A stretch of 64,000 nt of DNA, from the NCBI GenBank assembly GCA_024636495.1, contig JAGXGZ010000061.1, positions 1 through 64,000 on the forward strand, given 5' to 3'. The notes beneath the pieces are model-generated. The model was given only the letters and a program-made list of their open reading frames with translations. It made no database searches and was not told the DNA's origin. How positions within the stretch are numbered: position 1 is the stretch's first letter; each line of letters begins with the position of its first letter. Positions 1 to 3,842 of the stretch are shown here, piece by piece. Origin of the DNA: Roseobacter sp. (GTDB lineage Bacteria > Pseudomonadota > Alphaproteobacteria > Rhodobacterales > Rhodobacteraceae). The translations under genes were made by a program, and so were the position numbers.

Positions 1-142
1 AAACCACATCTTCGATTCCTATGACGACGTCCTTGATCATTGCTGTGACGCTTGGAACAAGCTGATCGCGCAGCCCGACCGCATTGCCTCCATCGGAAAC
101 CGAAAATGGGCTCAAGAGTTCTGATCAATGCAGGTTGGTATA
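1..142 (+). mobile_element. 3' end of an IS630-family insertion sequence
   Basis: The left edge carries the last 40 codons of an IS630-type transposase followed by about 15-18 non-coding bases. The element sits inside the coding sequence of the minus-strand dehalogenase gene, whose homology begins again at about position 155 and is clear up to the HPFTL motif (141-155). IS630 elements insert at TA dinucleotides, and a TA lies at 139-142, so I place the right end there by inference. The inverted repeat cannot be confirmed because the other end is outside the window. Confidence 0.6.
2..124 (+). CDS. IS630-family transposase, C-terminal fragment (partial)
   Basis: The reading frame is open from the window edge to a TGA at 122-124 and encodes 40 residues. 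They include SYDDVLDHCCDAWNKLI, then a basic stretch and the ending RKWAQEF. This closely resembles the C-terminus of IS630-type DDE transposases, which typically end in a similar DHCC-AWN...SIG..WA..F pattern. The catalytic DDE residues would lie upstream, outside the window. Assignment rests on this short tail only, but the match is distinctive. Confidence 0.7.
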   Translation, partial: NHIFDSYDDVLDHCCDAWNKLIAQPDRIASIGNRKWAQEF

Positions 143-3100
143 AGGTGAAGGGATGGTTGGTATAGTCCGGCTGCTTGGGCGGAGCGAAATATTCAAGATG
201 CAGTGCGGCTTCTGACAGGCCGTTTGCAACGCCTGCATCCAGCACCGACCGCATGTAAGCATCTGGCCCGCAGGTATAAACATGTGTGTCTGTCGCGGCA
301 CTTGCGATCAGCGCAGTCATATCGGCGCGGGTGTTTTCGGCGCTCAGATGCAGATGAACGCGGTCTGCCCAAGGAGTATTGACCAACATGTCGATAAAAG
401 GCGCAGCGCCACGAGAGGGCGCGGAGTAGTGCAGATCGAAAGGCCGTTTCAATGCGTGCAGGCGGTGGGCGAAGGCAATCATCGGCGTAATGCCAATGCC
501 GCCGCCGAAAAGCAGACTGTGCGGCGCATCTTCGACCAGTTCAAAATGGTTGACTGGGGCTGCCACGAAAACCCGCCGGCCTTGTGTGAAAATACGGTGC
601 AGCAGGGCAGAGCCGCCGCGCCCTGCGTCTTCGCGCAGCACCGCAATCCGGTAGCGGCTGCGGTCGGCGGGATCGCCCAGCAAGGAATAGGGCCGCAGAT
701 ATTCGGGTGCGACGACCAGATCAAGATGTGCGCCCGCCGTCCATTCGGGCAGATCGGCACCACCCGGATGGACCAGATCATAGAGGCTGACGCGGTCGCT
801 TAGGGCCGTAACCGCCCCGATGCGAAGGTCCAGAACAGGCGTATCGGCCCCGGCGGTATAGAGATGCAGATGGTCTGTTTGCCCTGCGGCGCTGCGCCTG
901 CGATGGTCGTCAGCCGACAGCAGTGCTGCATGCGCCTTGATCCCGGCCTCGCGGTTCATGGGGTCAGGGTAGGGCCATGGATGGGGGGCAAGGGGGGCAG
1001 GGTAGACGGCCAGCGTCTGATCTTGGAGGCGCAGGTCGAGATCGCGTTGCAGCCCGCGCGCATTGACGGGATGGGTGGGCTTGGTGACGCGGCCATCGCG
1101 CTGGCGTTCAAGATCCCACCACCATTTTTTCACTGGGTTCAGCCCGCCGCGCCCCATGGCATCATCCAGCCGCGCAAGGATCGGAGCCGCCGCGGGGAAC
1201 GTACTTGCCGCCCAGCGAAAGGGCGCTTCTGCAAACAGTCCCTCAAGGTTCCACGGGCAGGTTTTCATGCAGCGGCCACACATTGATCCGCCTTTGTTGG
1301 TGATCCGGTAAGTGGCGCATTTCTGGCTGTCAGATTTCCAGATTTCATACCCGTTGAACATTTTCTTGGGGCCAGCGGTGATCGCGCCCGAGGGGCATTC
1401 ACGGGCGCATTTATTGCAGGCTTCGCAGAATTTTTGCAGACCAAAGTCGATGGGCCGGTCATGCGTGACGGGCATCGTGTGGGTGACGATGCCGGATTTC
1501 AGGCGCGGGCCCAGAAACGGGTTCAGGATCACTTCGCCAATGCGGCTGACTTCGCCCAGCCCCGCCAGCAAAAGCAGCGGTGGTTGCAATACATCGCCGT
1601 CCATCACGGTATGCGCCTTGGCGCGGTGGCCCAGATTTCGCATATGCTGCGCAAGGATACCGCCCAGAACCGAGAACCGCAGATAGGCGCGCATTGATTG
1701 TGCGGTACTGATCCAATCATCGCCTGACGCGCCCTCCATCGTCTCGAAGCCCTGATCTATCACGACGCCTAGCGCGTGATCATGGGGCGGGGTGATGGGG
1801 CTGCCGGTCGCGTCATGGCTGTACCACGTCCAATCAGGGCAGGCACAAAGACCCGCCGCATCGACGCCCAGAAAATATGCGGCAGCCTTTAGGTTGGCGG
1901 CATTGCGGCTTGGATCATCCCTTAATGGCGTCGCAGCCATAGCCCCGTCTTGCAGCAAGATCAGCGCCCCAAGCAGACGGCGCTGTGCAGCGGCAGGGGC
2001 GGATTTGACGATATGTTGGCCGCCCTTCATCGCATCCTGCACCTTGGTGCCCATGTCACCGAACTGGCCACGGGCGAACATGTCGGTCCGTTTGGGCACG
2101 CGCGGGACGTTGGCAGCATCAATATAGGTTGTGGGAGTATCGACGCGTTTCAACGTCTCGAACGGGTGGGGGCCATCGACAAAGTTGCGCTTGGCATAAG
2201 GATCATGGCTTTGGGCATTCAGGCCACCATGGGTGCCAAGCTGCCAGACATGGCCCCGCAAAACCGATGCGGGTTGGCGGGCGAGGGGCGCAAGCGGCAA
2301 ATCGGCGGCCAGGATCATATCGGTTGTGATGGCCGCCAGGCCAAAGCGTTGCGCCAGCCAGGGGGCTTTGGGGGTGCCATCTTGCATCACCGTCAGCCCG
2401 GCGGCCAGCGCCAGTTGCGCAAGATTGATATCGCTCGAGGTGACGGAATGGGCGCGCGCGTCAAAGCCAAGGATGCGGATATATTCGGCCAGGACGGTCG
2501 CGTTTTCGGTCGCGCGCAGGGCTGCACGTTGCTGCTGCGCGTCGATGATCCAGTCAGATCCGACCTCATTTGGCAAAGGGTCGCGGGGAAAGGCTGTCAG
2601 CACGACAATCGCATGGGTGTGACTGGCAATGCTTGCGTGATCGGCCCCAGCTGTCTCGCGCAGATCCGCCATGATCGCGTCAATCCCGGTGGCCAACGTC
2701 GTGGTCTGGCGCTCCTTGAGGTCTTGGACCAAGGCGGCAACGCCTACGTTTCTGCGTGGGGCCGACAGAATAGCGCCCTGCGGCAAGGCGCAGACCCCCA
2801 TCATCGACGCATCGTTGTAATAGCCAAATGCCTTGAGGTGCTGTGCCCTTTCCAGCGGATCCGTCGGGATGTCGGCCTTGGTATCTGCCACCCTACCAGA
2901 GCGAAGCGCATCCATCATGGCTTGAAACGGCCCCATGGCGTTGATGATGCTTTGGGGGCGGTCCGGTGCAGCAAAGGACACGCTGGGAAAGGGGATGTCA
3001 GGCAAAGCCTTCAAAGGGGCATCCAGCCTGCGCAACCGCTCAAGCGGGTAGGGGCCAAAATGGACGGGGCGCGATTTGCCTGAGAATAACTTCATAAGAT

Positions 3101-3209: not shown

Positions 3210-3842
3210 TCAGGCAAGCGTGATTTCAAGATCGCAGGGCAGCCGCTGGTCATAGATGCGGCGGGCGTTCGCCATGTCATTGCCATCGGCACGCGCCTCG
3301 GCTTGGGCTTGGGTGTGGTCATGGGCCAGCCAGCGGTCAATCAGCCTTGCGCGCAGGGTCGCTTCGGGAACGTGCAGGAACACGCGCAAATCCCAAAGAC
3401 TGTGCAGATCGCGCCAGCCCTCGGCATCAAACAGTAGATAATTCCCCTCGATCACGACCGTCTCGACATCGGGCGACAGGGTGCCGCCTGCAGGGATCGC
3501 ACGATCAGCGGCGCGGTCAAAGGTCGGGTAAGAGACATCTGGCGCGTCCCTAAGCCGGGTGATCAACCCGGTTAAACCGTCGATATCAAAGGTTTCCGGT
3601 GCCCCCTTGCGGGCGCGCAGACCCATCTTGTCAAGTTCGGTATTGTCCAGATGAAACCCGTCCATCGGCACCACTTGGGCGGTGTGGCCGGTTGCACATA
3701 GCTGATCCACGATCTGTACAGCGATCGTCGATTTGCCGCTGGCGGGTGCGCCTGCAACGGCGATCAGGCGGCGTTTCCCCGATTTCGACGCACTGGTGAT
3801 GGCAGCACATAACTGTGCTAGATCGGGGGTAGTGTTGATCAT
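3210..3842 (-). CDS. P-loop nucleoside/sugar kinase-like protein
   Basis: A 210-residue protein with a Walker A motif GAPASGKST at about residues 31-39, followed by a domain typical of the uridine kinase/phosphoribulokinase-like family (for example FrcK-type and YggC-type proteins). Later motifs include PMDGFHLD and VVIEGNYLLFD, both characteristic of this family: the first carries the substrate-binding aspartate and the second the Walker B-like strand. The true substrate cannot be told from sequence. It lies 24 bp downstream of soxT on the same strand and may be co-transcribed with soxSRT, though nothing links it to sulfur metabolism directly. Confidence 0.8.
   Translation of the reverse strand: MINTTPDLAQLCAAITSASKSGKRRLIAVAGAPASGKSTIAVQIVDQLCATGHTAQVVPMDGFHLDNTELDKMGLRARKGAPETFDIDGLTGLITRLRDAPDVSYPTFDRAADRAIPAGGTLSPDVETVVIEGNYLLFDAEGWRDLHSLWDLRVFLHVPEATLRARLIDRWLAHDHTQAQAEARADGNDMANARRIYDQRLPCDLEITLA

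What the first reader, a model, noticed from the sequence alone, without database searches (positions are those of the whole stretch)
1..3095. A fused, cytoplasmic reductive dehalogenase in a roseobacter, broken by an IS630 element just before its ferredoxin domain
The minus strand encodes a long frame with two 4Fe-4S motifs and an attached FMN/NAD(P)H-reductase module, the layout of BhbA and NpRdhA. This type is rare and is known to remove halogens from phenolic acids aerobically. The IS lies between the reductase NAD domain and the missing 2Fe-2S domain, so it appears recently lost. A relative without the IS may carry an intact copy beside its sox island. The gene is truncated by the window edge, so a simple gene finder could miss it.
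Basis: partly seen in the sequence, partly recalled or inferred. Interest (0 to 1): 0.78.

Follow-up and report, generated by a model that had tools for sequence, protein, structure and literature searches.

The report
Debromination enzyme gene split by transposon
A marine Sulfitobacter-like bacterium carries a known kind of enzyme gene for stripping bromine from phenols, cut in two by a jumping gene just before its last electron-carrying domain, while most related species keep the gene whole.

Summary
Confirmed. Window 141-3095 (-) holds 985 codons of a fused catabolic reductive dehalogenase (RdhA plus phthalate-dioxygenase-reductase module); with its other half it is 48% identical to BhbA end to end, and six of six tested NpRdhA active-site residues are kept. 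Bases 1-140 are the right end of an IS630-type element; the window begins at the contig start. The missing 2Fe-2S domain lies at the end of contig C41, against the left end of the same IS. The flanks share a TTA/TA duplication and meet in frame as 1067 residues. In three named Sulfitobacter the intact gene lies between the same sox island and the same rpe/matB genes, which strongly supports the adjacency. The type is not rare: 53 of 62 genomes of the genus, own included, have a homologue, and NpRdhA lacks the reductase. The class is characterised (JtRdhA, PMC10463259) and its spread in roseobacters is in print (PMC13101508). This is an ordinary, probably recent IS knock-out of a known enzyme; three further genus copies look broken too, so the gene seems dispensable.

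The parts
141..3095 (-). 5' 985 codons of the interrupted fused reductive dehalogenase gene (RdhA + FMN/NAD reductase module, without the 2Fe-2S domain)
2286..2864 (-). N-terminal vestigial copy of the RdhA cobalamin-binding domain
   Evidence: second, weak TIGR02486 match in G000, 32.4 bits, E 1.0e-7; 'vestigial duplication' described in PMC10463259
1152..1781 (-). catalytic RdhA domain (TIGR02486 positions 88-312)
   Evidence: 152.1 bits for this stretch alone; residues S467, M468, Y471, K533, R597 lie in it
1392..1427 (-). first 4Fe-4S motif CEACNKCARECP (residues 557-568)
   Evidence: Pfam Fer4 families
1257..1280 (-). second 4Fe-4S motif CGRCMKTC (residues 606-613)
   Evidence: Pfam Fer4 families
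141..833 (-). phthalate-dioxygenase-reductase-like FMN + NAD(P)H module (residues 755-985)
   Evidence: 2pia_A E 8.1e-30
1..140 (+). right end of an IS630-type insertion sequence; transposase C-terminus at 2-124; terminal repeat TACCAACCTGCAT read inward
   Evidence: same DNA at C92:1-141; 40-aa tail 70-73% identical to annotated IS630 family transposases on plasmids; repeats
141..143 (.). one copy of the target duplication TTA (gene strand); the other copy adjoins the IS on C41

Best explanation
This is a probably recently inactivated self-sufficient catabolic reductive dehalogenase. The intact enzyme takes hydride from NAD(P)H to FMN, passes single electrons through a C-terminal 2Fe-2S domain and two 4Fe-4S clusters to cobalamin, and removes bromine (or iodine) ortho to a phenolic hydroxyl; this is inferred from JtRdhA, BhbA and NpRdhA. 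An IS630-type element inserted at a TTA/TA site after codon 985 (shown from both flanks). It separates the RdhA-FMN-NAD part from the 2Fe-2S part, so electrons from FMN should not reach the corrinoid, and the strain has most likely lost the activity (inferred). Relatives keep the uninterrupted gene at the same place (shown).
For: Family, domains and active-site residues. Missing domain at C41 next to the IS left end. TTA/TA repeated at this site and at the second IS site, and an in-frame 1067-residue product when the flanks are joined. Intact orthologues of 1067 residues in the nearest relatives and the same neighbours on both sides in L033, L035 and L110. Recency: no other stop or frameshift in either half, and pairwise dN/dS of about 0.08-0.12 to the five nearest relatives compared. 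JtRdhA biochemistry (PMC10463259).
Against: The link C1-IS-C41 crosses an assembly gap; no single contig shows the whole element. In polarised codon counts the nonsynonymous share is higher on the own branch than on the sister branch in four of six comparisons (clearly in two: 44:186 against 16:137 with L110/L035, and 50:190 against 17:113 with L033/L035) and lower in two; earlier relaxation is possible, and dS is near saturation. Loss of activity was not tested.
Confidence: 0.93

Rival explanations
1. The gene is intact in the organism and the break is an assembly or population artefact (for example only part of the culture carries the insertion).
For: Both flanks end inside the IS at contig ends; the genome is in 95 contigs.
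Against: Both flanks carry IS end sequence directly against the gene with a repeated TTA, and no contig with the empty site was found: the own-genome search with the 991-residue frame gave the window gene and one reductase-only match on C8, and the C-terminal search gave one strong match, on C41, and four weak ones.
Confidence: 0.04
2. The split gene still works as two polypeptides: RdhA-FMN-NAD plus a freestanding 2Fe-2S ferredoxin started inside the IS, or replaced by another cellular ferredoxin.
For: An in-frame TTG inside the IS would give a 99-residue protein that holds the whole 2Fe-2S domain. NpRdhA lacks a reductase and was driven by separate partners (PMC10463259). Neither half has a further stop or frameshift.
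Against: No sigma-70-like promoter found in L030:2500-2983 (other promoter types not covered). The upstream half would carry an antisense IS tail of at least 46 residues whose end is not in the assembly. The NpRdhA partner system is slow and poorly coupled.
Confidence: 0.04
3. The gene was broken long ago and is decaying.
For: Nonsynonymous share higher on the own branch in four of six polarised comparisons, clearly in two; three other genus members have damaged copies.
Against: No second lesion in 1067 codons; pairwise dN/dS is low. The IS ends are identical in both genomic places, though overlapping contig ends of one repeat could look identical for assembly reasons.
Confidence: 0.06

Closest known systems
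BhbA of Comamonas sp. 7D-2 (plasmid pBHB, NC_021077)
   Same: Same order over the full length, 48% identity; first described catabolic RdhA.
   Different: BhbA is intact, on a plasmid typed as conjugative, beside tripartite tricarboxylate transporter and porin genes; here the gene is interrupted and lies beside a sox island.
JtRdhA of Jhaorihella thermophila (characterised self-sufficient RdhA)
   Same: RdhA fused to a PDOR module, with the same key residues as NpRdhA (sections read).
   Different: JtRdhA is whole and active; its sequence was not compared here.
NpRdhA of Nitratireductor pacificus (4ras, 6zxu)
   Same: Same RdhA part: 44% identity over 503 residue pairs of the alignment blocks used, six of six compared active-site residues kept.
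   Different: NpRdhA naturally lacks the reductase module.
IS630 family insertion sequences
   Same: Transposase C-terminus 70-73% identical to annotated IS630 family members; TA at the target (the TA rule for IS630 is recalled).
   Different: The full element is not in the assembly; the duplication reads as TTA, which cannot be told from TA plus an unequal IS end.

Membership tests
[quoted passage not shown]
   TIGR02486 184 bits for the protein, cut-off 160.35, though 152.1 for the catalytic stretch alone in the genome scan; NpRdhA E 6.9e-155; PF13486 not matched
[quoted passage not shown]
   6 of 6 kept: Y471, K533, R597, F340, S467, M468
[quoted passage not shown]
   residues 557-568 and 606-613; Fer4 Pfam matches
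[quoted passage not shown]
   second TIGR02486 match at window 2286-2864, weak (E 1.0e-7)
[quoted passage not shown]
   2pia 8.1e-30 on residues 755-985
[quoted passage not shown]
   cut off by the IS; present on C41. The locus is a broken member, not a working one.
[quoted passage not shown]
   the N-terminus aligns with the NpRdhA start and shows no twin-arginine motif by eye; no predictor was run
[quoted passage not shown]
   needs an enzyme assay
IS630 family | IS630 transposase | tested here: met
   40-aa C-terminus matches annotated IS630 transposases at 70-73% (one of them shown with its CDS); no Pfam or NCBIfam match for so short a piece; only the ends of the element are held
IS630 family | TA target duplication | tested here: inconclusive
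   TTA repeated at both insertion sites, TA at its core

The most novel reading that the evidence does not exclude
The insertion has turned a one-piece enzyme into a working two-piece one: the upstream half keeps RdhA and the FMN/NAD module, and the 2Fe-2S domain is made separately from a start inside the IS. Transposition would then have recreated the partner-dependent state known from NpRdhA.
Probability: 0.03. Interest if true: 0.5.

Novelty: new member of a known kind. Interest (0 to 1): 0.2.

Why it matters
A gene for a probable aerobic debrominase is almost genus-wide here (53 of 62 genomes, own included) yet looks broken in 4 of those 53, by different lesions. That gives natural knock-outs with close intact relatives for asking what the enzyme does for marine roseobacters. 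The enzyme class itself is already characterised.

Tried and rejected
PF13486 rang neither in the own genome nor in the 14 controls, so that search shows nothing about absence. In one search my script did not turn the reverse-strand loci, so it printed a full C-terminus for only 12 of the 19 relatives listed there; the lengths of 17 relatives come (1064-1077 residues; the 1077 of L040 includes extra residues before the start). The neighbour survey used 76 of 80 loci; L062, L072, L096 and L112 were dropped because no plus-strand open frame over 2.7 kb was picked. In the 22 largest clusters printed I saw no catabolic cluster shared across genera, only sets within Sulfitobacter or within other groups; names there are my reading, and no family scan of neighbours was run. 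The search for a full IS copy in the genus found the two own ends and one weak partial match in G059, 2 of 62 genomes. Considered and rejected: chance frame, chimeric contig, membrane-bound respiratory RdhA.

Full report
Observation. The window starts at base 1 of contig C1 of a 95-contig genome. The minus-strand frame from 3095 to 141 holds 985 codons that match reductive dehalogenases: TIGR02486 at 184 bits for the protein, cut-off 160.35, and NpRdhA structures at E about 1e-154. Against this, the catalytic stretch alone scored 152.1 in the genome scan, below the cut-off, as did many genus members, and Pfam's PF13486 did not match. Residues 755-985 match phthalate dioxygenase reductase. BhbA of Comamonas sp. 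7D-2 aligns end to end with the joined protein at 48% over 1078 columns and at 48% with 99% of the interrupted query. The six active-site residues that PMC10463259 lists as conserved between NpRdhA and JtRdhA are all kept. A second, weak TIGR02486 match marks the N-terminal duplication.

The break. Bases 1-140 are the right end of an insertion sequence; the same DNA starts contig C92. Its 40-residue transposase tail is 70-73% identical to annotated IS630 family transposases on plasmids. The missing 2Fe-2S domain is at C41:53094-53345(-) in the same genome, against the left end of the element, which also occurs on C36. The genome thus has at least two copies. Both insertion sites show TTA on each side. 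Joining the flanks of the gene with one TTA gives one open frame of 1067 residues, the length of the nearest orthologues, whereas a plain TA model with symmetric IS ends shifts the frame. TTA repetition, and TA repetition with an unequal IS end, cannot be told apart.

Adjacency. In Sulfitobacter sp. CW3 (L033), Sulfitobacter sp. HGT1 (L035) and S. marinus DSM 23422 (L110) the intact gene lies between the sox-side genes of this window (YeeE, ArsR, CcdA, SoxA, SoxB, SoxC) and the rpe and matB genes of C41. The Sox genes and CcdA were found in 3 of 80 fetched loci and YeeE and ArsR in 4 of 80 (also S. mediterraneus, L036); loci reach at most 10 kb to each side, and some are shorter. Rpe was found in 18 and MatB in 19 of 80, of which five MatB matches at 25-32% identity are unlikely orthologues. 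These gene names are my reading of the sequences, not database results.

Distribution. A search of 193 relatives, own included, found a match at E<=1e-60 in 78: 53 of 62 genomes of the own genus, and 26 of 132 genera. Five of the 78 (G094, G118, G124, G160, G181) match only in the RdhA part; the other 73 match up to residue 985 or beyond. Nine genus members have no such match (G004, G005, G011, G036, G037, G041, G051, G059, G061); three of them are under 90% complete. Named relatives include Sulfitobacter, Shimia, Marivita, Phaeobacter and Roseobacter (the tool kept 80 of 484 confirmed stretches). The own genome shows no second reductive dehalogenase by TIGR02486 or by protein search. Among 72,556 plasmid records, 14 match at E<=1e-40 and 8 of these cover at least 80% of the query.

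Other broken copies. Sequencing error cannot be excluded for the two frame splits. With the own copy, 4 of 53 genus copies look broken; the open frame of the other 49 is at least 1051 residues.

Age of the insertion. There is no other stop or frameshift in the 1067 codons. Pairwise dN and dS are 0.114 and 1.15 (L033), 0.114 and 1.49 (L110), 0.122 and 1.12 (L035), 0.128 and 1.07 (L005), 0.123 and 1.48 (L034). In polarised counts the nonsynonymous share is higher on the own branch in four of six comparisons, clearly in two, and lower in two. The insertion is best seen as recent, with room for earlier relaxation.

How it works. From PMC10463259 (abstract, introduction, modelling section and discussion read): JtRdhA, a fused enzyme of a marine bacterium, dehalogenates bromo- and iodo-phenols with NADPH, also in air, while corresponding chlorinated compounds only inhibit; [quoted passage not shown] Cutting off the 2Fe-2S domain should therefore uncouple NADPH from the corrinoid. 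This last step is inference.

What is in print. PMC13101508 (abstract and the sections on screening, phylogeny and discussion read) states that putative bhbA homologues are widely distributed in the Roseobacter clade. It characterises another RDase, from Roseobacter sp. MED193, whose 4Fe-4S motifs lie at residues 283-345 and which is therefore probably a shorter protein. A search for 'reductive dehalogenase' with 'Sulfitobacter' listed two papers with one mention of each term (listing only). Searches for 'self-sufficient reductive dehalogenase', for 'reductive dehalogenase' with Rhodobacteraceae and cobalamin, with Roseobacter, and with BhbA listed 2, 1, 12 and 9 papers (apart from the two papers named, listings only). 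None of these listings names this IS insertion; that is no proof that it is not in print.

Verdict. Interest 0.2.

Noticed in passing
G028:C4, G038:C1, G045:C31 (L121-L123): Three other genomes of the genus carry the same gene split by a frame change near residue 170 or by a deletion of about residues 200-273 with a frame change; apparently independent losses of the same gene.
   Followed up: partly
G000:C36 start and C92 start (L032, L024): A second place of the same IS shows the same TTA on both sides; which gene or frame it hits there was not identified.
   Followed up: partly
whole genome G000: No match to QueG (TIGR00276) in this genome, though many genus members show a second, QueG-like match to TIGR02486 at profile positions 151-280; may be an assembly gap (94.57% complete).
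   Followed up: no
genus: Several genus members also hold short RdhA homologues in open frames of about 390-570 residues, possibly like the MED193 debrominase; none was found in the window's genome.
   Followed up: no
window 3210-3842 (-): A P-loop kinase-like ORF (label from reading the sequence) next to the dehalogenase was found near the gene in only 1 of 80 fetched relatives, Sulfitobacter sp. HGT1.
   Followed up: no
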